Assembly (NCBI RefSeq): GCF_013294025.1
Contig: NZ_JABSNL010000001.1
Span: forward strand, 168,095 to 232,094
Source: Flavobacterium aeripolare
Lineage (GTDB): Bacteria; Bacteroidota; Bacteroidia; Flavobacteriales; Flavobacteriaceae
Reading direction: 5' to 3'
Length of the DNA: 64,000 nt
Shown: positions 6,750-42,525 of the stretch, one piece after another
How positions within the stretch are numbered: the first letter of the stretch is position 1
Layout: every line of letters begins with the position of its first letter
The notes under the pieces: generated by a model
What the model was told of the DNA's origin: nothing
Databases searched by the model: none
What the model saw: only the letters and a program-made list of their open reading frames with translations
Translations under genes and position numbers: made by a program

Positions 6750-7055
6750 TGCCCTTAGAAAAGACAAAACAAATCCATCTAGTTTGTCATTCTGAAAGAA
6801 TCTAACAAACGCATGCACAGTGAGCAACCGCAATAAAGCTCATTGCGAGGAACACGGTAATCGGGTACAGTGCGTCGCTTTTTAATGAGTTTTAAAATTA
6901 TTTTTGGACGATTATTATTGGTGCTTTTTGTTATCTAGTAACGGACTTGATCACTGTAATTGCCAATAGAAATGGGCGCAAAGTCGGAGACATTTGCGCA
7001 GCGTTCACGATCGAATTTCCGTTTGAAAATTGAATTAGGGATTATACTTGCGGAT
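6750..7055. repeat. modular hairpin repeat, copy A (with tail)
   Basis: The copy contains in order: GTCATTCTGAAAGAATC (6786), a CATTGCGAGG...GGTAATC palindrome, GTTATCTAGTAAC, GCGCAAA...TTTGCGC (about 6975-6998) and a tail ending in GATTATACTTGCG. The left edge is degraded and its exact limit is uncertain. Similar copies occur near 7.06, 20.9, 35.3, 35.5, 38.0 and 38.3 kb. Confidence 0.8.
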
Positions 7056-7059
7056 TGGA

Positions 7060-7300
7060 TTGCTTGCTTTGGGTTGGCTTTTTTAACCCGATAAGCCATT
7101 TAAGTTTTATCTTCTTTGAGACTTTTAAACTATATGAAAAATTAAAGAACATATACCTTTTGGCGCTTAAAAGCACCCAACTTTACACAAAACAAATCTA
7201 CCTAATTTGTCATTCTGGAAGAATCCCACACAGGCATACACAAAAAGCATTCGTAATCAAGGTCATTGCGGGGAACGCGGCAATCACGTATTTAAAGAGA
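7060..7300. repeat. modular hairpin repeat, copy B (tail missing)
   Basis: It starts with GGCTTTTTTAACCCGATAAGCC-like sequence, passes through GTCATTCTGGAAGAATC (7209) and ends just after GGGAACGCGGCAATCACG. The later modules are absent. It lies directly upstream of the PLD/J-domain gene promoter region. Confidence 0.75.
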
Positions 7301-7424: not shown

Positions 7425-8786
7425 ATGCAAGTCGAAGCTATTTTCGCGAACATCCCTGACAGAATAATCTACGAAATAGAAATTGCGAAACAATCCATCT
7501 ACATTGCAGTTGCTTGGTTTACGAACAAATTAATATTTGAAAAATTAGTTTTCAAAGCAAAGAATGGTTGTAAAGTGTACATCATAATTTCAAATGACAA
7601 AATCAATGAAAACTCGCAAATAGATTTTGAAATATTAGAAAAATTAAATGGCAAAGTATATAAAATTGGGAATGGTGACACCAATCTTATGCATAATAAA
7701 TTTTGCATAATTGACCATACAACAGTAATAACTGGCTCCTATAATTGGAGTTATAAAGCTGAAACTAATCACGAAAACATTGTAATAAACTCAAACAATT
7801 CTGCATTAGCACAGCAATTTATCAGAGAGTTTAATTGTATTGTAGAAAAAGAATTTCCTAATCAAACAAATGAAGATTTTGATTTTCCATTAGACAAAAT
7901 AATTAAACGTTTAGAAGTTATAAAAAACCTTATTCTTCTAGAAGATATTGAAGATTTAGAAACAATCACAAAGAAGTTATTCATCTACAAATTCAACGAA
8001 GATATCAACAGCATAATATCTTTTATGCAAGGAAAAGAATACGGAAAAGCAATAAAATCTATTCAACTTTTCATCTCCAATTATCAGCAACTTTCTATAT
8101 GGAACGACCCTGAAATAGCCGGAATTAAACTAGAAATCAAAATATTAGAAAGCCAAGTAAATGCTTTTGATAATGAAAAAATTGAATTAGAGAAAGTACT
8201 GTCTGATTTTCAGCACAGACATACGATAGAATTAGGGAAATTGATTTTAGAAATACTCCAATTACGAAAAATCAAGTTTAAAAACCAATCGAGAGAAAAA
8301 GAAACTGAAGAAGATTTCAATAATTACCAAGAGCAATTTGAAATTGAAAAGCAGAAAATACAATTTGAACTTACTGATGAAGAAAAACTAGATTTAAAGA
8401 AAAAATTCAGAAAAGCGACAACTTTTTGCCATCCTGACAAAGTAAATGATGAACAAAAAGAAGAAGCCGAACGCATCTTTATCAATCTAAAAAAAGCGTA
8501 TGACGAACACGACGTTGAAATGGTAAATCAAATTTTGAAAGATTTAGAGTCAGGCAAATTATTTCAATCCAAATCAGATACCACATCTGAAAAGGAGAAG
8601 CTCAAGATAATTTTAGAAAATTTAAAAGCCAACTTGAAACGCATTGAAAAAGAAATTATTGAATTGAAAACCAATGAAACGTTTGAAATAATCAATAACA
8701 TTACAAATTGGGACAATTATTTCACCGAAACAAAAGAGCAACTGAAAGACGAATTAAACAATTTAACTTTAGAAATGGAACAATAG
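7425..8786 (+). CDS. PLD-family nuclease domain fused to a J-domain
   Basis: This 453-residue protein has an N-terminal phospholipase D-like domain (about 1-140) with one HxKx4D motif: His90, Lys92 and Asp97, followed by GSYNWS. One HKD motif per chain implies a dimer of the Nuc nuclease type. The middle (about 150-320) is charged and helical. A J-domain-like segment covers about 318-370, with the HPD tripeptide at 336-338 after a basic helix and followed by a KKAYDEHD helix. A second coiled coil makes up the C-terminus. No signal peptide is seen, so it should be cytoplasmic. The combination suggests a nuclease regulated by, or delivered to, an Hsp70 chaperone. The gene starts a close-set cluster; the next gene begins 1 base after its stop. 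Confidence 0.8.
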   Translation: MQVEAIFANIPDRIIYEIEIAKQSIYIAVAWFTNKLIFEKLVFKAKNGCKVYIIISNDKINENSQIDFEILEKLNGKVYKIGNGDTNLMHNKFCIIDHTTVITGSYNWSYKAETNHENIVINSNNSALAQQFIREFNCIVEKEFPNQTNEDFDFPLDKIIKRLEVIKNLILLEDIEDLETITKKLFIYKFNEDINSIISFMQGKEYGKAIKSIQLFISNYQQLSIWNDPEIAGIKLEIKILESQVNAFDNEKIELEKVLSDFQHRHTIELGKLILEILQLRKIKFKNQSREKETEEDFNNYQEQFEIEKQKIQFELTDEEKLDLKKKFRKATTFCHPDKVNDEQKEEAERIFINLKKAYDEHDVEMVNQILKDLESGKLFQSKSDTTSEKEKLKIILENLKANLKRIEKEIIELKTNETFEIINNITNWDNYFTETKEQLKDELNNLTLEMEQ

Positions 8787-8787
8787 A

Positions 8788-10323
8788 ATGGAAAACAATA
8801 ATAAATTAACCGTTGCATCGCAAAGTTCGCTCCTAAATAAAGTAAATTCAAGTGTAGATATTACAAATAAATTGATTACTGAAAATAATAAAAAGTTGGT
8901 TGCTGAAATTTTTGAAAGTAATCCGAAATTCTTTACTGATTTAATTTCAGAGTATTACTCATTAAATGAGCAAGTAATCGACTTGTGTACAGATATTTGG
9001 AATTGGAACTCTATTAGCAATAACCTTAATATTAATTGGACTATTTCTTTCATTACAAAATATCAAAATAGCTTAATTTTTGAAGAATATGGTATGTATT
9101 CATCATATATAGACTCAGGCTTAATTACAAACACTAGTTTAAAATGGGATTTCGATTTATTAATTACTTTTAAAACTAAATGGAACTTGGCGTATTTTAG
9201 TGCTTATATTGATTTATCTTGGACTGATGATAAAATAGATTTTCTAGAAAATATTTTAGATTGGGATGGACATGTATATGGCAGTGTTATAAATAACCAA
9301 CATATAAAATGGGATTTTAAATTAATTGAGAAATACAAAAATAAAATATGTTGGCGCGAATTAAGCTACAATGAAAGACTGCCTTGGTCAGAACAATTTA
9401 TTGACAAATATGCCGAAAAATGGTTTTGGGGTGACGAATATTACAATAATATGAGTCACAACAAAGGATTTCCTTGGTCGATAGGTTTTATTAAAAAATA
9501 TACTGATAAATGGCAATGGACTGGTATTCATTCTTTAAGTGATAATCCTTACATTCCTTTTAGTATTGAATTAATTGAAGAGTTTAAGGAAAAATGGGCT
9601 TGGGATGGTGAATATGGATTAAGCAATAATATTGGAATTAATTTTACAACAGAAATCATTGATAGATTTATTGATCGATGGGACTGGAAGTTCTTAAGCA
9701 ACAATGAAAAAGTTAATTTTACACAAGAAACTATTGATAGATATGCTAATTATATCGACTGGGACAGTCTTTCAAAAAATAGAAATATATTATGGACAAT
9801 AGACTTAATTGAACAATACGAAAGTCAGATAAATTGGAAAGATTTCAATTATTCTACATTTGAATCTTCATGGATTTTAATAGAGGAATATAGCAGTAGA
9901 TTAGATTTCAATCAACTTTCATCAAATAAAAGTAACTTTTGGAATGAAGTAGTGATTGAACAATATAAAGACAAGTTGAATTGGAAAAGATTAAGTAATA
10001 TTGAAACATTACCCTGGAATGAAAATTTCATAAAAGATTATGAAGATTTATGGAATTGGAATGATGGCCATTTTGATTTATCAAGTAATAAAAATTTACC
10101 TTGGTCATATAATTTTATAAACAGATATGCTGATAGATGGAATTGGGAGAATTTAAGCAAAAATGAAAGTATAAATTGGAACGTAAAATTACTGCATAAA
10201 CATTCTCACAAATTAATATATCCTCGATATAAATCTCCAACTGCAATATGGAACACATTAAAACCATATATTGATGACGAGCTTATAATTAAATTACTTG
10301 AAAATATTCAAAATAACAAGTAA
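8788..10323 (+). CDS. Trp-rich tandem-repeat protein, unknown function
   Basis: The 511-residue protein begins with about 70 residues of mixed helix, then about 15 imperfect repeats of 24-31 residues. The unit is roughly W-x-x-LSxNxxLPWSxxFIxKYxDKWxW. Typical units are RELSYNERLPWSEQFIDKYA and HFDLSSNKNLPWSYNFINRY. The regular aromatic spacing predicts a solenoid-like binding surface. There is no signal peptide, no membrane helix and no catalytic motif that I recognise. The gene is tightly coupled to the PLD/J-domain gene: the stop is at 8786 and this ATG is at 8788. It therefore probably works with that protein, perhaps as a sensor or scaffold; this is inference. Confidence 0.75.
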   Translation: MENNNKLTVASQSSLLNKVNSSVDITNKLITENNKKLVAEIFESNPKFFTDLISEYYSLNEQVIDLCTDIWNWNSISNNLNINWTISFITKYQNSLIFEEYGMYSSYIDSGLITNTSLKWDFDLLITFKTKWNLAYFSAYIDLSWTDDKIDFLENILDWDGHVYGSVINNQHIKWDFKLIEKYKNKICWRELSYNERLPWSEQFIDKYAEKWFWGDEYYNNMSHNKGFPWSIGFIKKYTDKWQWTGIHSLSDNPYIPFSIELIEEFKEKWAWDGEYGLSNNIGINFTTEIIDRFIDRWDWKFLSNNEKVNFTQETIDRYANYIDWDSLSKNRNILWTIDLIEQYESQINWKDFNYSTFESSWILIEEYSSRLDFNQLSSNKSNFWNEVVIEQYKDKLNWKRLSNIETLPWNENFIKDYEDLWNWNDGHFDLSSNKNLPWSYNFINRYADRWNWENLSKNESINWNVKLLHKHSHKLIYPRYKSPTAIWNTLKPYIDDELIIKLLENIQNNK

Positions 10324-10387
10324 GATGCAATCAGTAAACCAAAATTTAAAATAAAAAGTCAATTTAATAGACTTTTAAAAAAATCAT

Positions 10388-10825
10388 ATGACGAATAAAA
10401 AAGAACAACTTGAGGAATTTTACAATTATAAACATTGGAGAGACATCCAACGCAATCAGTTAAATACTAGCTCAAATATTATATTTACATTTAGCGCAAC
10501 AATTATAGGGTTCACAGTTAACTACTTGATGAAGAATAAAATTTGTAGCTGCGAAACAATTAATAGTTTATTAAGATTATCAGTTATAGCATTATTATTT
10601 TCAATTTTATTTTATTTGGTGATGAACATATCAAAATTAATAGATTTTAGAAAAACTGCCAGATCTATTAAAAGGGCAATTAAAAATGAAATTACATTTG
10701 AAGATATTGGCAAAAAAACGAAGCTCCTTGGTGATATATCATGGTGGAGTTTTTGGTTGGAACTTGCATTTGCGCTAATAGGTTTTATATTTTTAATTAT
10801 TAGTATATTTAAAACTATTTATTAG
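10388..10825 (+). CDS. small three-TM membrane protein, unknown
   Basis: This 145-residue protein has a charged N-terminus (about 1-28), hydrophobic segments at about 29-47 and 62-83, a cytoplasmic basic and acidic loop at about 87-115, and a last hydrophobic segment at about 120-143. The layout recalls small membrane effectors of defence and conflict systems such as SLATT-type proteins, but I cannot see a diagnostic motif. It lies 64 bp after the Trp-repeat gene, and the next gene starts 2 bases after its stop, so it belongs to the same transcription unit. A membrane-perturbing role is only a suggestion. Confidence 0.65.
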   Translation: MTNKKEQLEEFYNYKHWRDIQRNQLNTSSNIIFTFSATIIGFTVNYLMKNKICSCETINSLLRLSVIALLFSILFYLVMNISKLIDFRKTARSIKRAIKNEITFEDIGKKTKLLGDISWWSFWLELAFALIGFIFLIISIFKTIY

Positions 10826-10827
10826 AA

Positions 10828-11403
10828 ATGAAAATAGCAATACTCGGTTGGGGTTCACTTTTATGGCAACCCAAAGATTTACAATTTGATAAAGAAACTG
10901 GCTGGACAGCAAACGGACCTTTTTTACCCATTGAATTTGCAAGAATTTCCAAAGATGGAAGATTGACTCTTGTAATCACTAAAAACGCAACTGAAGTGCA
11001 AACGTACTTTGCAATTTCAAGTTATGAAAATCTCCCAGAAGCAGTTTTGAATTTAGCTGTTAGAGAAGGTACTGGAAAAGGGCAAATTGGTAGTTATGAA
11101 AAATCAATTGATACTTTTTCGCATGAAAATGTGTTCTTTAAGAATAATATTTTAGAATGGATTAAGTCCACCGATATTGATGCTGTAATCTGGACAAATC
11201 TTGGTGAAAAATGGGAAATCAAAAACGACGGTGGCGAAGTCATTGAAACAATTGTTTCTGAAGATAGAATTGACTATTTAAAAAAGTTAAAGGGAAACAA
11301 AAGTGCTTTAGCCGAAGAATATATTCGACGAACTCCAACACAAATTCAAACTCATTACAGGACTTTAATTGAAAAGGAACTGGATTGGAAACCTATATTA
11401 TAA
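10828..11403 (+). CDS. gamma-glutamylcyclotransferase-like fold protein
   Basis: The 191-residue protein opens with KIAILGWGSLLWQP. This resembles the glycine-rich YGSL(I/L)W loop that starts gamma-glutamylcyclotransferase and ChaC-type folds. It continues with PIEFARISKDGRLTLVI, where that family carries a strand. A single catalytic Glu could not be assigned by eye. The family acts on gamma-glutamyl amines or peptides, but many members are uncharacterised. The gene is in the PLD/J-domain cluster and overlaps the next gene by one base (TAATG), so the two are translationally coupled. Confidence 0.55.
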   Translation: MKIAILGWGSLLWQPKDLQFDKETGWTANGPFLPIEFARISKDGRLTLVITKNATEVQTYFAISSYENLPEAVLNLAVREGTGKGQIGSYEKSIDTFSHENVFFKNNILEWIKSTDIDAVIWTNLGEKWEIKNDGGEVIETIVSEDRIDYLKKLKGNKSALAEEYIRRTPTQIQTHYRTLIEKELDWKPIL

Positions 11404-11834
11404 TGGACGAATTTAAACATCCATTTATAGTTGGCAAACATAAACTCAGGCTTTCAAAATTAGAACAACTTGCAAAAGATTTAGCTTTAAAATTAAATGC
11501 AACAGTTAAAATTGAGAGTCAGGAAGGATTAATTATTACGTTTGAAAGTAAAAAATCCATTTATAATGGTCGCCTCATCCAAAGAAACTCCTCATTAACT
11601 CCTCAATTCAAATATGAATTAATTTTGGAGGAATTCAGATTGAACATTTATGAAGATTTTATAGAAGTACTTTTCCGATTTGATGTTGACTATTTTCATC
11701 TTTATGATTTGTCGATAAAAGATGAATTAAAAAAAATTGATACTTTTCATAGATGTTTTGCAATATTAAATATTTTTGGAGTCAAAGATATTTATATTGG
11801 AGATTTCAATGAATTTCGAAATGGAAAAAAATAA
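11403..11834 (+). CDS. hypothetical protein coupled to the GGCT-like gene
   Basis: I do not recognise this 143-residue protein. It appears to be a soluble mixed alpha/beta domain (MDEFKHPFIVG start, then alternating strands and helices), with no signal peptide or membrane segment. The ATG at 11403 overlaps the stop of the preceding gene in a TAATG arrangement, so I prefer it to an in-frame ATG six codons upstream. It is the last gene of the cluster; a flavobacterial repeat follows about 105 bp later. Confidence 0.6.
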   Translation: MDEFKHPFIVGKHKLRLSKLEQLAKDLALKLNATVKIESQEGLIITFESKKSIYNGRLIQRNSSLTPQFKYELILEEFRLNIYEDFIEVLFRFDVDYFHLYDLSIKDELKKIDTFHRCFAILNIFGVKDIYIGDFNEFRNGKK

Positions 11835-20939: not shown

Positions 20940-21320
20940 ATTATTAGTCGCGCTATGTGGGTTGCCTTTTTTAAGCTATTTAAATTTTTACCTTTCAGAC
21001 TTTTAAACCATTTAATAAATTAAAGAACATATATGTTTTGATACTTAAATGCACCCAACAAAACGCAAAGTAAATCTACCTAGTTTGTCATTCTGCAAGA
21101 ATGGAACGCACGGATTCACTACGACATTCGTAATCAAGGTTATTGCTAGGAGCGCGGCAATCACGAACGGTGGGTTGCTTTTTATTGAGTTGCAAATTTG
21201 ATTTTAAAGAATTATTACTGGTGCTTTCTGTTATCTAATAACGGATTTAGTTTGCGGGCACAGAATACAATTCTGCGCTAACGAACCGCTGAAACTACAG
21301 TCATTCATATTCGAGCGAAG
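20940..21320. repeat. modular hairpin repeat, copy C (divergent tail)
   Basis: It runs from a GGTTGCCTTTTTTAAGC-like start through GTCATTCTGCAAGAATG, TTGCTAGGAGCGCGGCAATC and GTTATCTAATAAC. Its final module differs from the other copies: GCGGGCACAG...TTCTGCGC replaces GCGCAAA...TTTGCGC. The remaining 160 bases up to the Crp/Fnr gene hold nothing else that I recognise. Confidence 0.75.
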
Positions 21321-35144: not shown

Positions 35145-35280
35145 AGATCTAGGAAGCGTTTAAATAAGCGCTTGCCTAACTATTCTAATCAAAAAACAAT
35201 ATATTTAGGGTTGCGCACCATCTCGTGCCACCTAAAAAGATTTGTTGCTAACTATGAAAAATGACCTAATCCAACATCTG
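35145..35280. other. non-coding gap after hxlR
   Basis: About 135 bases between the HxlR stop and the first recognisable repeat module. I see no gene. A weak AAGCG...CGCTT pairing near 35153-35175 could be a terminator remnant. Confidence 0.4.
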
Positions 35281-35565
35281 AGCACATCCACCTAGTTTGT
35301 CATTCTGCAAGAATGGCACACACGCATACACAACGAGCATCCGCAATCAGGGCCATTGCGAGGAACGCGGCAATCACGTGCAGTGCGTCACTATTTATTG
35401 AGGTGTAGATTTGATTTTAAAGGATTATTATTGGTGCTTACTCTGCATTGGCTTTTTTAACCATATAAGCCATTTAAGTTTTTATCTTCTTTGAGACTTT
35501 TAAACCATTTAAGAAATATAAGAACATATACCTTTTGGCGCTTAAAAGCACCCAACGAAACGCAA
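35281..35565. repeat. modular hairpin repeat, copy D
   Basis: The copy has GTCATTCTGCAAGAATG (35299), CATTGCGAGGAACGCGGCAATC and TTATTATTGGTGCTT, then passes directly into the next unit. GTCATTC in copy E follows at exactly 285 bases. Confidence 0.85.
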
Positions 35566-35850
35566 AGCAAATCTACCTAGTTTGTCATTCTGAAAGAATC
35601 TCATGCACGCATACACAACGAGCATCCGCAATCTGGGTCATTCCGAGGAACGCGACAATCACGTACAGTGAGTCGCTTTTTATTGAGGTGTAGATTTGAT
35701 TTTAACCGATTATTATTGGTGCTTTTGTTATTTAATAATGGATTTAGCTACGGTAATTGTCAATAGGAATGAGCGCAAAGTCGAAGACATTTACGCAGCC
35801 TTCACGATGGAATCACCGTTTAAAAATAAAATTGGGCATTATACTTTGCG
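35566..35850. repeat. modular hairpin repeat, copy E (with tail)
   Basis: The tandem partner of copy D, with GTCATTCTGAAAGAATC at 35584. It carries the tail: GTTATTTAATAA, GCGCAAA...TTTACGC and ATTATACTTTGCGGAGCG. The tail abuts the SDR relic at 35859. Confidence 0.85.
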
Positions 35851-35858
35851 GAGCGAGG

Positions 35859-36127: not shown

Positions 36128-36303
36128 TTTGTACACTTTAGATAAATTATTAATCCTTTAAACATCTAAAAATGGTATTTGGTATAATAAATTAAAAAAT
36201 TTAATATCAATGCTAAATTGCATTTAACTGAAGTATATTGCTCAAATACAAAATTTATAATGGAAATTACCGTTATATAATCACACACAAAATAACTACA
36301 ATA

Positions 36304-37281
36304 TTGGATTTTACAAACCCGTTAGTCTATGGAGTTCCTTGTTTTTTGGGCTTTATCGCAATAGAACTTACTTACAGCAAAACTCATGACGACAAAGAAT
36401 TATACAAATGGAAAGATTTTTTTTCCAGCTTATCACTTGGAATAGGATCTGCAGTAATTGGTGCTCTGGTAAAAACAGTAGCCGTAATTTTAGTCTTTAA
36501 TTTTGCTTATGAGCTATTTAATCCTATTGTGGATGGTGTTAGAACCAATATTATGGGTTGGCAATCTTTTGGATATGCTTGGTATGTTTGGATAATCTGC
36601 ATGCTATTAGACGATTATTCTTATTATTGGTTTCATAGACAAAACCATATGGTCCGTTTTTTATGGGCTGCACATATTGTACATCACTCTTCAGACAATT
36701 TTAATTTAGGAACAGCGGTACGAAATGGTTGGTTTACTATTTTTTACAAGCCTTTTTTTTATGTTTGGATTGTAATTATAGGTTTTCCACCAGAAATGTT
36801 AGTTGTTTGTATGGGGATTGAAGCTTTATGGCAATTTCAACTTCATACGCAGTATGTAAAAAACTTAGGATTTTTAGAAATCTTTTTAAATACACATACC
36901 ATGCACCAAGTGCACCACGCTCAGAATATTGAATACATGGACAAAAATCACGGTGGAATCCTAAATGTATTTGATCGCGTTTTTGGGACTTGGAAAAAAA
37001 TTGACCAATCTATTGATATAAAATATGGTGTTTCTGTCCCTCCAGAATCTTATAACTTGTTTATAATTTTAACACACGAGTATAAAAACATTTGGGATGA
37101 TATGAAAAAATCAAGTAATTGGTATCACAAATTTAAATACGCCTTTGCTGCTCCTGGTTGGAGTCATGACGGAAGCACACAAACGATTAAGCAAATTAGA
37201 AAAGAAATGGCAGAAGATGCTAATAACAATTTAGAAGTATCAAATCCTAAACCTATTTTGATAAAGAGTGATGTAAAATAA
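36304..37281 (+). CDS. sterol desaturase / fatty acid hydroxylase family membrane protein
   Basis: The protein has the three His clusters of the family: YYWFHRQNH (HxxxH), AHIVHH (HxxHH) and MHQVHH (HxxHH), plus a NHGGILNVFDRVFGTW block and several TM segments. It is a di-iron membrane hydroxylase or desaturase acting on lipids. No ATG precedes the conserved sequence in frame. I choose TTG at 36304, which gives LDFTNPLVYGVPCF at the usual family start (325 residues). A TTG at 36238 would add 22 residues without family similarity. Loss of the original start by the nearby rearrangement is possible. Confidence 0.8.
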   Translation: MDFTNPLVYGVPCFLGFIAIELTYSKTHDDKELYKWKDFFSSLSLGIGSAVIGALVKTVAVILVFNFAYELFNPIVDGVRTNIMGWQSFGYAWYVWIICMLLDDYSYYWFHRQNHMVRFLWAAHIVHHSSDNFNLGTAVRNGWFTIFYKPFFYVWIVIIGFPPEMLVVCMGIEALWQFQLHTQYVKNLGFLEIFLNTHTMHQVHHAQNIEYMDKNHGGILNVFDRVFGTWKKIDQSIDIKYGVSVPPESYNLFIILTHEYKNIWDDMKKSSNWYHKFKYAFAAPGWSHDGSTQTIKQIRKEMAEDANNNLEVSNPKPILIKSDVK

Positions 37282-37409: not shown

Positions 37410-38285
<876 letters not shown>

Positions 38286-38710
38286 GTACTTACTCTAGAT
38301 TGGCTTTTTTAAACCATATAAGCTAGTTAAGTTTTTATCTTCTTTATGACTTATAACCATTAAAGAAATTAAAGAATATATAAGTTATGCCGCTTAAATG
38401 CACCCAACGAAGCGTAAAGCAAATCCACCTAGATTGTCATTCTGAAAGAATCTCGCACATGCATACACAACGAGCATCCGCAATCATGGTGATTGCGAGG
38501 AACGCGGTAATCGCGTACAGTGAGTTACTTTTTATTGAGGTGTAGATTTAATTTTAAAGGATTATTATTGGTGATTTCTATTATCTAATAACGGATTTAA
38601 CTACCGTAATTGTCAATAGGAATGAGCGCAAAGTAGAAGGCATTTGCGCAGCGTTCGCGATGGAATTGTCGTTTGAAAATTGAATTAGGGAATATACTTC
38701 GCACAGCTGG
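38286..38710. repeat. modular hairpin repeat, copy G (with tail)
   Basis: The tandem partner of copy F, with GTCATTCTGAAAGAATC at 38436, GATTGCGAGGAACGCGGTAATC, a TTATCTAATAA module, GCGCAAA...TTTGCGC and the tail ending AATATACTTCGC. It ends about 20 bases before the stop codon of the FRG gene. Confidence 0.85.
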
Positions 38711-38726
38711 GATATTATTTCCATAA

Positions 38727-39563
38727 TTACTCTCCTAAGTTTTTTACATTAATTGCTTTTAATTCTTCATCTACATTATCGTCTTTACGATAGTACTGCC
38801 AATCTATGGTTGCGCCATGAGCTTCGAGTTCAGCTTTGATAGATTTTTTTGCATCACCCTCAATAATTAACTCTAAAAGTAAGTCTTTATATTCTGGTTG
38901 CTCTTTTAAATCTATTGCTCCTTTTCTTACTGACTGTAGCCAAAAACGCCCAGCTTGTCTTGAAATTCTTTTTTCACCCACATAATCAAATTTATCATTT
39001 AACAGGTAGATTGGAGTATTAATCATCATATCTTTTTCTAATTCAAAAGGGTCAAGTTGTGAAGAGGCTTTAGAAATTTTATCTGAATTAAACAACTGGT
39101 CTCTGGGAACCAAAAAAACATTAAAGGTTCCATCTTGTCCAAAATGTTTTTCATTCTCTACAGCAAACATTAATGCAGTTTCCCAACCGATTGACCAATC
39201 CATGAATCTTGTTTTTAATCCTAAATGTTGTGCTTGATAAAGTGCATACCATTTATTTTTTAATTCTGGATTATTATCATTTTCGCCAAATGGAAGTCTA
39301 ATATAATCATCTTGATTTGCAACAAAATTCATAAAATCATTATATAATTTTTTTTCAATTTCAATAAATTCTTCAGGAGATAATTTATTTCTGGCTAAGC
39401 CACAATTTAGCTCATATTTGACTAAACCGTGACCTCTATAATTTTCCATTATATCATAATAAATCCGTAACTCTTGTATTTGGCTTATTATAGGTTTTAA
39501 TTCAGCTATTGATTTTATTCTAGTTCCTTGATATTTGGCAATAAGTTGTTCGATTGTCTGCAT
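38727..39563 (-). CDS. FRG-domain protein
   Basis: The 278-residue protein has the FRG signature: NYRGHG (41-46) and AQHLGLKTRFMDWSIGWETALMFAVEN (111-137), where Gln-His, Thr-Arg and Asp-Trp are the conserved pairs. FRG proteins are scattered in bacteria and phages and are often found in defence loci; their biochemical activity is not established. No membrane segment is visible. It lies on the same strand, downstream of the HD/GHKL ATPase gene, with a 178-bp spacer that holds a repeat tail. A joint function is inferred from this pairing. Confidence 0.85.
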   Translation of the reverse strand: MQTIEQLIAKYQGTRIKSIAELKPIISQIQELRIYYDIMENYRGHGLVKYELNCGLARNKLSPEEFIEIEKKLYNDFMNFVANQDDYIRLPFGENDNNPELKNKWYALYQAQHLGLKTRFMDWSIGWETALMFAVENEKHFGQDGTFNVFLVPRDQLFNSDKISKASSQLDPFELEKDMMINTPIYLLNDKFDYVGEKRISRQAGRFWLQSVRKGAIDLKEQPEYKDLLLELIIEGDAKKSIKAELEAHGATIDWQYYRKDDNVDEELKAINVKNLGE

Positions 39564-39635
39564 TTATATATATAAGATTTATCGTTTAAAATTAAATAAA
39601 ACCACATATTTATCTGAATTTAGTCAAGTTCTTTT

Positions 39636-39735
39636 AATTGTCAATAGGAATGGGGTCAAAGTCGGAGACATTTGCGCAGCGTTCATGATATAATTGAGCT
39701 TTGAAAATTGAATTAAGAATTATACTTTGCGTAGC
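39636..39735. repeat. modular hairpin repeat, tail-only copy H
   Basis: Only the tail is present: TTGTCAATAGGAATGGGG, then AAAGTCGGAGACATTTGCGC and finally GAATTATACTTTGCGTAGCG. It separates the FRG and HD/GHKL genes and ends 6 bases before the HD/GHKL stop codon. Confidence 0.8.
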
Positions 39736-39741
39736 GGGTTA

Positions 39742-42255
39742 TTATTTTTCAAATTCTGTTTTTCTTTCGAAAAAATTATTTACGAAGTTCTTTAAAGTTA
39801 CTTTTTCATCTTTATCTAAATTCATTAAATCCATAGCACCTAAATGAATAGCTTTTCCTACTATATAATTAACAGTATCTATGGCTTTTGAATCTATATT
39901 GTTTCGAGAAATATCTGGTATAAATTTACGTGAATTTATATTTATAACGATAGTATTAATTTCAAAAACGGAAGCTGAAATACGAATATTAAAGCGGAAG
40001 TCTTTTATTAAAACACTTCTCATAAATAGTTCTTTTCTTTTTTCGGGAGTGCGCCAAGAATACATTGAACTATCTTTGTCTTGGGTATCAAAAGGTAAAT
40101 ACAAATTATTTTTTCTGCCTTCAAATAAAGTAATTTCTTTTACATATGCTTTTGTAATACAAGAATCAGAATGTCCAATTTTCTGAAGTTCTTCTATACC
40201 AAGTTTTTCAAAAATAGAACTGCCAGATTTAATAATTTCATCATAGAGTGATTCTTGATAATCTTTGGGGAAAATTACCGAAATCCATGTTAATTCACGA
40301 TCCATTTTGTCAATTACTTCATCTACATCTTCATTTGTAAATTTCATGCCACTGCTAAAATCATCTTCAAAATTATCTTCAACGAGTGGTATTGAAAGAT
40401 ATTTAATTTCTTCAGCAACGATGTAATCGTCGATATTTAAAGTTGAAAAATCAGTAACTTCTTCTAAACCTTCATCATCATTGTATTTATATAAAGTTCC
40501 AGGGAAGTTTATTTCATCAAACTTTTTTATAAACTCACTTTTTGGTTTAATTAAAGCGTATCCTTCTATGTCTTTTATATAATCTTTAAGGTCAATTTTG
40601 ATAAAACCCTTTTCAAGTGGAGTTGAAAGTTTTATGGGATTTTCAATTTTTGTAATTTCTTTTAATGATTTATCTACCACTTCAAAATTAATACCATCAG
40701 TGAGGAAATATTTATTTAAAAATACTTTTACATTTTGGGGTTTATTTTCAAATACTTTTATGAAGTTAATATAATTAAGAATGACTTCAGTTCCATCAAA
40801 TGATACATCTTCAGATTCCGTTAAAGAAGTCCATTCATTTCCTTTTTCAAGCTCAATTAAATATTTGTTTTTTGCTTTGTAATGTCTCGTTAATACTTTA
40901 ACTTCATCAGATAGCATAAAGCAAGAGAGAAACCCAATTCCAAAATTACCTATTGGTTTATATTCAAAATCTTTAAGTAAAAAGTCTGTTGAATTATAAT
41001 AAGAAACACCAATGTTTAAGAAATGTTTTTTTATTATATCCATAGACATTCCTGAACCATTGTCCTTAATGATAGCTTGGTTTTTATCTATATCTAAAAT
41101 AATTTTAATTTTAGGTTGATAAGTATCTTGACCAAATTCATGTTTCATCTCTTCGGTTTCTTGTCTTATTCTGCAAGAATCAATTGAATTTTGTATTAAT
41201 TCTCGAAGTCCCAAAGATTTACTACCATAAATTTTTTCTCCCATTAATAATGAACTAATGGCTTTGAATTCTAATGTCATTTTATAGTCAGAAAATGTAT
41301 AGCCCTCTGTCTGTATATTAATTTCAGGATTTGTATCATATACTAAACTATATTGAGTTGGCATAGAATTAACTAATGCGGTAGCATTAGTTAATTCATA
41401 TTTAACCCAGCTTATATAAACTAGTATTTTTCTATGGATACTTGCATTTGTTGCTTTCCCGTGAAAAACTACTTTTTTTTGTTGTGTTTTTTCGTTTATT
41501 ATAATTTTATCATTGTTAGATATTATGAAATGTTGTTTCCATTCTTCATCACTTATTCCTTTTGGAGAAATTATTTTATATAAATTATATGGTGTTCTAT
41601 TACCATCAATATCTAGAATATCAGCAAGACGTAAAACAGAGGCAATATATTGTGAATTAAATGAATAATCTCCTCTAACTTCATTTGTTCTTAAGTTCGA
41701 TTTAATCCAATCATAATCTTCAGTATGTGCTTGGCATATCAATGCAAGTTCTTTTGCAAAATCAAGATTTGTTAATTTAGGAATTATTAAATTATCCTTG
41801 AGATTTTCAATAATGTATCTCCCAGAAAGCGAAGCGTGTATTCTTCTAACATATTCTTGTAATGCTAAATCTTCGTTTCCATTCATTATTTTTTTCATAG
41901 CAGAAAACTTTACATCACAAAATGGAAATGAGTCAGTTTTAATTAAGTTTACATCTTCTTCACTAACTGCCATTCCAATATCATGTAATAATGCTGAATA
42001 TATCAGTAACGTTATTTCAAGTTCATTTAATTTAGAAACATCACTAACTATCTTGCTCATATATTCCATTATTCGAAATGAATGACCAGTATTGTGTAAA
42101 GTGTAATGTGGAAAAACATATTGTATTCTACTATTTAAAATATCTTTAACAAATTCAAAAACCTCTCCAATTTTAGGAAGAAATGGACTTTCAATACTTT
42201 TAAGATGCTTTATAAACGTTAAGTCATCCAATTTGAAATCTGTGTCAATATTCAT
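39742..42255 (-). CDS. HD-domain plus GHKL (Hsp90-like) ATPase protein
   Basis: The 837-residue protein has an N-terminal HD-type phosphohydrolase-like domain: HNTGHSFRIMEYM with His58, SALLHDIGM with His91-Asp92, later QAHTEDYDWI and LRLADILDID (208-217). A GHKL ATPase follows: N-box RELIQNSIDS (351-360, Glu352/Asn356), DNGSGM (399-404) and GNFGIGFLSCFM (436-447). A long C-terminal region resembles the middle part of HtpG-like proteins. The fusion suggests an ATP-driven conformational switch with nucleotide hydrolysis or binding. It is followed on the same strand by the FRG gene, and both are enclosed by modular repeats. I regard the pair as a candidate defence or stress module. Confidence 0.8.
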   Translation of the reverse strand: MNIDTDFKLDDLTFIKHLKSIESPFLPKIGEVFEFVKDILNSRIQYVFPHYTLHNTGHSFRIMEYMSKIVSDVSKLNELEITLLIYSALLHDIGMAVSEEDVNLIKTDSFPFCDVKFSAMKKIMNGNEDLALQEYVRRIHASLSGRYIIENLKDNLIIPKLTNLDFAKELALICQAHTEDYDWIKSNLRTNEVRGDYSFNSQYIASVLRLADILDIDGNRTPYNLYKIISPKGISDEEWKQHFIISNNDKIIINEKTQQKKVVFHGKATNASIHRKILVYISWVKYELTNATALVNSMPTQYSLVYDTNPEINIQTEGYTFSDYKMTLEFKAISSLLMGEKIYGSKSLGLRELIQNSIDSCRIRQETEEMKHEFGQDTYQPKIKIILDIDKNQAIIKDNGSGMSMDIIKKHFLNIGVSYYNSTDFLLKDFEYKPIGNFGIGFLSCFMLSDEVKVLTRHYKAKNKYLIELEKGNEWTSLTESEDVSFDGTEVILNYINFIKVFENKPQNVKVFLNKYFLTDGINFEVVDKSLKEITKIENPIKLSTPLEKGFIKIDLKDYIKDIEGYALIKPKSEFIKKFDEINFPGTLYKYNDDEGLEEVTDFSTLNIDDYIVAEEIKYLSIPLVEDNFEDDFSSGMKFTNEDVDEVIDKMDRELTWISVIFPKDYQESLYDEIIKSGSSIFEKLGIEELQKIGHSDSCITKAYVKEITLFEGRKNNLYLPFDTQDKDSSMYSWRTPEKRKELFMRSVLIKDFRFNIRISASVFEINTIVININSRKFIPDISRNNIDSKAIDTVNYIVGKAIHLGAMDLMNLDKDEKVTLKNFVNNFFERKTEFEK

Positions 42256-42427: not shown

Positions 42428-42525
42428 AAATCCCTAGCCCAGATAGAAGTGAAAATCCTTTTGGGAAGGCGTTTTTCAGCCTTACCAAAAGATTGTAACG
42501 GATAGCTGGAAATAGCTCCAAAAAC
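42428..42525 (+). repeat. flavobacterial structured repeat, copy 2 (best preserved)
   Basis: The 5' block is CCTAGCCCAGATAGAAGTG. The central stem CTTTTGG-G-AAGGC pairs with GCCTT-A-CCAAAAG, and the 3' block is ACGGATAGCTGGAAATAGCTCC. The same outer blocks with a different but still paired centre occur at 55630-55735, which supports an RNA structure. Confidence 0.8.

What the first reader, a model, noticed from the sequence alone, without database searches (positions are those of the whole stretch)
38727..42255. HD/GHKL-ATPase plus FRG-domain pair enclosed in repeats
Two same-strand genes encode an Hsp90-like ATPase fused to an HD domain, and an FRG protein. FRG proteins are often found in phage-related and defence loci. 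Repeats lie on the downstream side and between the genes, and the neighbours are gene remnants, so the locus looks acquired.
Basis: partly seen in the sequence, partly recalled or inferred. Interest (0 to 1): 0.72.

Follow-up and report, generated by a model that had tools for sequence, protein, structure and literature searches.

The report
Mobile HD-Hsp90 defence gene candidate
Two intact neighbouring bacterial genes, an enzyme fused to an Hsp90-like ATP clamp and an FRG enzyme, look like separately acquired candidate anti-virus defence genes rather than a conserved two-part system.

Summary
Both ORFs are real and intact: 39742-42255(-), a Pfam HD-CE domain fused to an HtpG/Hsp90-type ATP-binding domain (837 aa), and 38727-39563(-), an FRG protein (278 aa). 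Their family-invariant residues are all kept. HD-Hsp90 instead looks like a horizontally moving gene without a fixed partner. It is 74-80% identical in four Bacteroidota whose HtpG is only 53-62% identical to ours, but 57% in a same-genus genome whose HtpG is 88% identical. In 6 of 6 close relatives with usable flanks a known or candidate defence gene lies within about 3.2 kb. Against this, several distant members sit in ordinary-looking chromosome. Repeats lie between the genes and on the FRG side, not around the locus. Mechanism (inferred): the ATP clamp gates an HD phosphohydrolase that shuts down infected cells; FRG acts separately, perhaps on NAD+. Both structure predictions failed. New member of known kinds; moderate interest.

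The parts
39742..42255 (-). HD-Hsp90 protein, 837 aa: HD-CE domain (residues 48-289), Hsp90-type ATP-binding domain (about 337-516), C-terminal region 517-837 of unknown fold
38727..39563 (-). FRG-domain protein, 278 aa; matches PADLOC candidate family PDC-S15
39604..39735 (.). 132-nt repeat copy between the two genes
38002..38707 (.). Composite repeat (68-nt and 223-nt units plus a 132-nt copy) behind the FRG gene; partner composite at 35218-35854
37410..37961 (-). Two separate fragments of an aspartate 4-decarboxylase C-terminus (gene remnant)

Best explanation
Two separately acquired candidate defence genes lie next to each other by chance. HD-Hsp90 works as a one-protein switch and effector: its Hsp90-type ATP-binding domain acts as a dimerising clamp that, when the C-terminal region meets an infection cue, releases the HD phosphohydrolase/phosphodiesterase site, which destroys a nucleotide or nucleic acid and stops the infected cell. 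FRG is a separate ART-like enzyme that may consume NAD+. Shown here: domains, invariant catalytic residues, discordant identity (horizontal transfer) of HD-Hsp90, defence genes near close relatives, no recurrent partner. Inferred: trigger, substrate, clamp motion, outcome for the cell, and any activity of FRG.
For: HD residues H54, H58, H91, D92, H140, H177, D212 and ATPase residues R351, E352, N356, D398, G400, G402, M403, F438, G439, G441 identical in 21 of 21 proteins. A known or candidate defence gene near HD-Hsp90 in 6 of 6 close relatives with usable flanks (L021 PDC-S06, L022 Old, L023 Avs2, L024 GmrSD_N and HEPN, L026 PDC-S06 and type I restriction genes, L121 LmuA/LmuB). HD-Hsp90 identity against HtpG identity: 80/57, 79/53-62, 75/56, 74/57 in four Bacteroidota, but 57/88 in same-genus G779. 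No neighbour family recurs in more than 3 of 32 HD-Hsp90 loci, FRG in none but this one. FRG invariant residues kept; FRG has no link to HD-Hsp90 in the genomes searched.
Against: No activity or protection was tested. The window itself has no recognised defence gene beside the two. Several more distant members (by eye L122, L134, L135, L138, L140) sit among ordinary chromosomal genes; neighbours of 16 of 31 other loci were neither scanned nor read from an annotation. Three distant or mid-distance loci have HD-Hsp90 beside a Lamassu-like set (L121, L123, L131), which argues for an accessory role in some cases. PADLOC has no system model for HD-Hsp90 (only REase_II at E 9e-4). Both structure models were unusable.
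Confidence: 0.5

Rival explanations
1. The two genes form a working two-gene unit in this strain: HD-Hsp90 senses infection and FRG kills, for instance by consuming NAD+.
For: Same strand, HD-Hsp90 first, 178 nt apart; no Bacteroidota-type promoter motif found between them.
Against: FRG beside HD-Hsp90 in 0 of 30 other genomes or records; 3 of 30 hold any FRG against 43 of 295; a 132-nt repeat sits in the gap; G+C differs (26.8% and 30.3%). Promoter motifs are weak evidence either way.
Confidence: 0.15
2. HD-Hsp90 is an accessory or regulator of ATPase-driven defence systems (Lamassu/ABC-3C, OLD, AAA_13) and is stranded here without its partner.
For: Lamassu-like ATPase near it in 3 loci in two gene orders (L121, L123, L131), AAA_13 ATPase in 2 (L021, L026); OLD- or AriA-like ATPases in L022, L133, L142.
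Against: No ATPase partner in this window; the partner ATPases are of different families and no family recurs in more than 3 of 32 loci.
Confidence: 0.2
3. HD-Hsp90 is a housekeeping-type or stress-related enzyme or chaperone rather than a defence protein.
For: The ATP-binding domain is clearly HtpG-like; several distant members lie in ordinary-looking chromosome.
Against: Well below the HtpG equivalog cut-off (82 against 371 bits); residues 495-837 do not match HtpG middle or C-terminal domains; patchy, transferred distribution (11 of 395 genomes).
Confidence: 0.12
4. The genes are cassettes of an integron-like element whose recombination sites are the 132-nt repeats.
For: One repeat copy lies directly behind each of the two genes.
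Against: The repeats do not fold better than shuffles (z from -1.6 to +1.2 over six folds of four copies); no match over the cut-off for the integron integrase model in this genome.
Confidence: 0.03

Closest known systems
Pfam HD-CE family (PF24391) followed by a GHKL ATP-binding domain
   Same: Full-length HD-CE match and the same two-domain order in relatives at 22-83% identity
   Different: No function found in the papers searched; the meaning of the name is not given by any search
HtpG/Hsp90 chaperone
   Same: N-terminal ATP-binding domain, including the invariant E, N, DxGxGM and FGxG residues
   Different: HD domain in front; no detectable HtpG middle or C-terminal domain; far below the HtpG cut-off
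VcSduA, a Shedu protein with an N-terminal GHKL ATPase (PMC12137116, passages seen)
   Same: GHKL ATPase fused to a hydrolytic domain; in VcSduA both activities are needed for protection
   Different: Effector there is a PD-(D/E)xK nuclease behind the ATPase, here an HD domain in front of it
FRG domain (PF08867) and PADLOC candidate PDC-S15
   Same: Profile matches over the Pfam cut-off and the residues invariant in 22 proteins
   Different: Divergent member: one relative at E 1e-8 in 394 other phylum genomes
Lamassu / ABC-3C systems
   Same: HD-Hsp90 genes lie beside such sets in L121, L123 and L131
   Different: No such set in this window

Membership tests
Pfam HD-CE (PF24391) | Score over the curated cut-off across the whole model | tested here: met
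   186.4 bits against 27, model positions 1-262 of 263
Pfam HD-CE (PF24391) | HD metal-site residues kept | tested here: met
   H54, H58, H91, D92, H140, H177, D212 identical in 21 of 21; their metal roles are inferred from known HD enzymes (recalled)
HD phosphohydrolase activity | Hydrolysis of a phospho-substrate | not testable with these tools
   needs enzyme assay
HtpG/Hsp90 chaperone | Equivalog score and middle/C-terminal domains | tested here: not met
   82 against 371 bits; residues 495-837 no match to 16 HtpG proteins by hhalign
FRG domain (PF08867) | Score over the curated cut-off and family-invariant residues | tested here: met
   48.6 against 25 bits; R43, R58, H113, D122, R199, Q203 in 22 of 22
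FRG as ART-like NAD-consuming enzyme | ART fold | tested here: inconclusive
   single-sequence model unusable, pLDDT 37
Conserved HD-Hsp90 + FRG two-gene system | Adjacency or co-occurrence in other genomes | tested here: not met
   0 of 30 adjacent, 3 of 30 with any FRG against 43 of 295
Defence system listed in PADLOC-DB 2.0.0 | Match of HD-Hsp90 to a system model | tested here: not met
   only REase_II, E 9.3e-4; the FRG protein matches PDC-S15, a candidate
Integron cassettes | Foldable attC-like sites and an integron integrase | tested here: not met

The most novel reading that the evidence does not exclude
HD-Hsp90 is an undescribed immune protein in which an Hsp90-type ATP clamp directly gates a phosphodiesterase-like HD site (HNxxH...HD...H...H...D), used alone and also plugged into Lamassu-like/ABC-3C operons in either gene order: a portable sensor-effector module that makes Hsp90 chemistry part of bacterial immunity.
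Probability: 0.3. Interest if true: 0.65.

Novelty: new member of a known kind. Interest (0 to 1): 0.42.

Why it matters
If HD-Hsp90 proteins are defence enzymes, an Hsp90-type ATPase acts in bacterial immunity as a switch rather than a chaperone, parallel to the GHKL-Shedu fusion; the gene is intact, single and easy to test. The negative result matters as well: the tempting HD-Hsp90 + FRG 'system' is, in every sample searched here, a neighbourhood peculiar to this genome and should not be named as a system.

Tried and rejected
Conserved pair: rejected by co-occurrence and adjacency. One caveat: in G487 the HD-Hsp90 gene runs off its contig end, so its downstream side is unseen, though its two FRG domains lie 7.9 kb or more inside other contigs.

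Integron cassettes: rejected. Repeats as borders of a mobile element: not supported; the full composite was found only in this genome, and 61 of 120 other genomes of the genus have only short partial matches (which scored 4 candidates a genome, so that count is a lower bound).

Empty-site comparison: no close enough relative. G845 keeps the monooxygenase, oxidoreductase and cupin at 46%, 51% and 76% protein identity but in another order; of 12 flank proteins compared with its 16-kb stretch only these three matched.

Phages, plasmids, viral contigs: the 24 phage records match the ATPase part only; nine listed plasmid records match HD plus ATPase at 23-39% identity and the other listed ones look HtpG-type (40 of 266 records listed); the FRG protein has no plasmid match; no relative confirmed in viral contigs, with patterns that reach close relatives only.

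Structure prediction: both models unusable (mean pLDDT 37.0 and 35.5), so no fold search was run. Promoter motifs: one -7-like motif upstream of HD-Hsp90, none between the genes; uninformative.

Literature: ten searches gave no paper on HD-Hsp90 as a defence system; preprints and most subscription papers are not held. Four papers were seen as passages only: PMC9503650, PMC12137116, PMC3710099, PMC13092281. The last lists a 'HATPase' domain among newly predicted defence systems in a figure that is not held, so overlap with HD-Hsp90 cannot be excluded.

Full report
What is there. The window lies at C1:168095-232094 of a 3.75-Mb genome in 36 contigs. No name is given; a Flavobacterium-like organism is inferred from HtpG, 87-88% identical to Flavobacterium fluvii and to a same-genus genome. 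Two intact ORFs run on the minus strand, 39742-42255 (837 aa) and 38727-39563 (278 aa), with 178 nt between them. The first holds an HD-CE domain (PF24391, 186.4 bits, cut-off 27) and an ATP-binding domain of the Hsp90 type (HATPase_c_3 34.2 bits, cut-off 25; HtpG model over residues 337-516, 82 bits; the 60 PDB matches shown, of 134, are Hsp90/HtpG chains). Residues 495-837 have no detectable similarity to 16 HtpG proteins by profile comparison. The second is an FRG protein (48.6 bits, cut-off 25) that also matches the PADLOC candidate PDC-S15 (1.7e-23).

Are they intact enzymes? In 21 aligned HD-Hsp90 proteins, the most distant 22% identical in a local alignment, seven HD residues (H54, H58, H91, D92, H140, H177, D212) and the ATPase residues R351, E352, N356, D398, G400, G402, M403, F438, G439 and G441 are identical in all. 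From memory, HNxxH...HD...H...H...D resembles two-metal phosphodiesterases; Pfam's PDEase_I model matches only weakly (E 0.016, below its cut-off). In 22 aligned FRG proteins R43, R58, H113, D122, R199 and Q203 are identical in all.

Is it a pair? In 395 genomes drawn across the phylum (this one included), HD-Hsp90 at E up to 1e-25 is in 11 and this FRG protein at E up to 1e-8 in 2; only this genome is in both lists. With the general FRG model, 3 of 30 other genomes or records bearing HD-Hsp90 have an FRG domain, each on a contig other than the HD-Hsp90 contig, against 43 of 295 other phylum genomes. Among 305 ORFs within 6 kb of HD-Hsp90 in 32 loci, no family recurs in more than 3 loci, and FRG appears beside HD-Hsp90 in this genome alone. 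Several of these loci end close to HD-Hsp90 (L023, L024, L025, L127), so adjacency there rests on the genome-wide result.

Company of HD-Hsp90. Eight relatives at 56-83% identity were found (L021-L026, L121, L130). L025 and L130 lie on contigs of 3.5 and 5.8 kb and their neighbours were not scanned. All six others have a known or candidate defence gene near: an AAA_13/PDC-S06 ATPase 21 nt away (L021) and 176 nt away behind type I restriction genes (L026); an OLD protein about 196 nt away (L022); Avs2 about 3.2 kb away (L023); a HEPN protein about 156 nt away with a GmrSD_N protein before it (L024); LmuA- and LmuB-like genes starting about 135 nt away (L121). L021 and L024 also have phage-type integrases upstream. 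Among distant members, L131 has an ABC-3C/Lamassu-like set (CTD1, MComp1, LmuB) with HD-Hsp90 43 nt behind it and L123 the same genes by BLAST; L133 has an AriA/OLD-like ATPase, L142 an OLD-like one 3.2 kb away; TIR matches in L133 and L126 and an nSTAND match in L125 are below their cut-offs. Plasmid loci L144-L146 carry annotated Shedu, AbiEii/AbiGii and TIR genes within about 5 kb. These distant loci were chosen by eye. Neighbours of 16 of 31 other loci were neither scanned nor read from an annotation, and several (L122, L134, L135, L138, L140) look like ordinary chromosome. No random-gene control was run.

Horizontal transfer. HD-Hsp90 is 80% identical in HGW-Bacteroidetes-16, 79% in Chitinophaga eiseniae, 75% in a Paludibacter MAG and 74% in Plebeiobacterium, while HtpG of this genome is 57%, 53-62% (two pieces), 56% and 57% identical to theirs. 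In same-genus G779 the order is reversed: HD-Hsp90 57%, HtpG 88%. Flavobacterium fluvii (83% over 448 residues against 87%) decides nothing. Of the nine genomes asked, G834 and G633 gave no HtpG match at the limit and G729 only a distant one (35%), so these three were left out. With the low G+C (26.8%; FRG 30.3%; window 33.9%) transfer of HD-Hsp90 is likely; for FRG only the G+C and rarity speak for it.

The repeats. A 132-nt unit (copies at about 6926, 35723, 38576 and 39604) and ~223-nt units form composites at 35218-35854 and 38002-38707, with parts at 6766-7290 and 20972-21229. All copies of 100 nt or more found in the genome lie in this window. None lies upstream of HD-Hsp90. Six single-strand folds of four copies are no better than shuffles and no integron integrase passes its cut-off. 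In 120 other genus genomes 61 have short partial matches, best E 1.5e-12. The copy near 6926 lies beside another low-G+C stretch, 7425-11834. The remnants are real and lie on the FRG side.

Mechanism. Most likely HD-Hsp90 is switch and effector in one: the ATP clamp closes as in other GHKL proteins, the C-terminal region senses an infection cue, and the HD site is released to hydrolyse a nucleotide or nucleic acid. The nearest studied logic is VcSduA, a GHKL ATPase fused to a nuclease, in which both activities are needed against phage (PMC12137116, passages). FRG would act on its own; PMC9503650 places it in the ART superfamily and says it might be a NADase (passages). Domains and residues are shown; trigger, substrate and outcome are inferred. 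Both AlphaFold models were unusable.

Novelty. HD-CE, GHKL and FRG are catalogued domains and FRG is a listed candidate. Ten searches found no held paper on HD-Hsp90 as a defence system, but a 2026 machine-learning survey (PMC13092281, one passage) lists HATPase-containing predictions whose figure could not be seen. I file both genes as new members of known kinds; the most interesting remainder is the HD-Hsp90 family itself, alone or beside Lamassu-like operons.

Noticed in passing
window 7425-11834: A second low-G+C stretch (27-29%) beside a copy of the same repeat: a PLD-family nuclease (NucT/DrmC-like) with a weak J-domain match, then four ORFs without Pfam matches. Possibly another acquired defence or mobile gene set.
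   Followed up: partly
window 42432-42516 (+): A Flavo-1 RNA (RF01705, 74.4 bits, cut-off 42) lies just upstream of the HD-Hsp90 gene, on the opposite strand.
   Followed up: no
L121, L123, L131: HD-Hsp90 genes lie beside Lamassu-like/ABC-3C sets in two gene orders: before the set in L121, behind it in L123 and L131. L131 also has an unrecognised 575-aa gene right after HD-Hsp90.
   Followed up: partly
L168 (G000:C4:203763-204035): The same genome holds a second FRG-domain ORF, 205-aa open frame, 87.7 bits, on another contig.
   Followed up: partly
L141 8220-9107 (-): The one relative found of this FRG protein lies close to type I restriction R, S and M genes.
   Followed up: partly
L122 5767-6993 and window 36238-37281: A fatty-acid-hydroxylase family gene lies near HD-Hsp90 in both loci (61 nt and about 2.5 kb away); probably chance.
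   Followed up: no
L128, L143, L144: HD-Hsp90 relatives that are split over two or more ORFs, so decaying or frame-broken copies occur.
   Followed up: no
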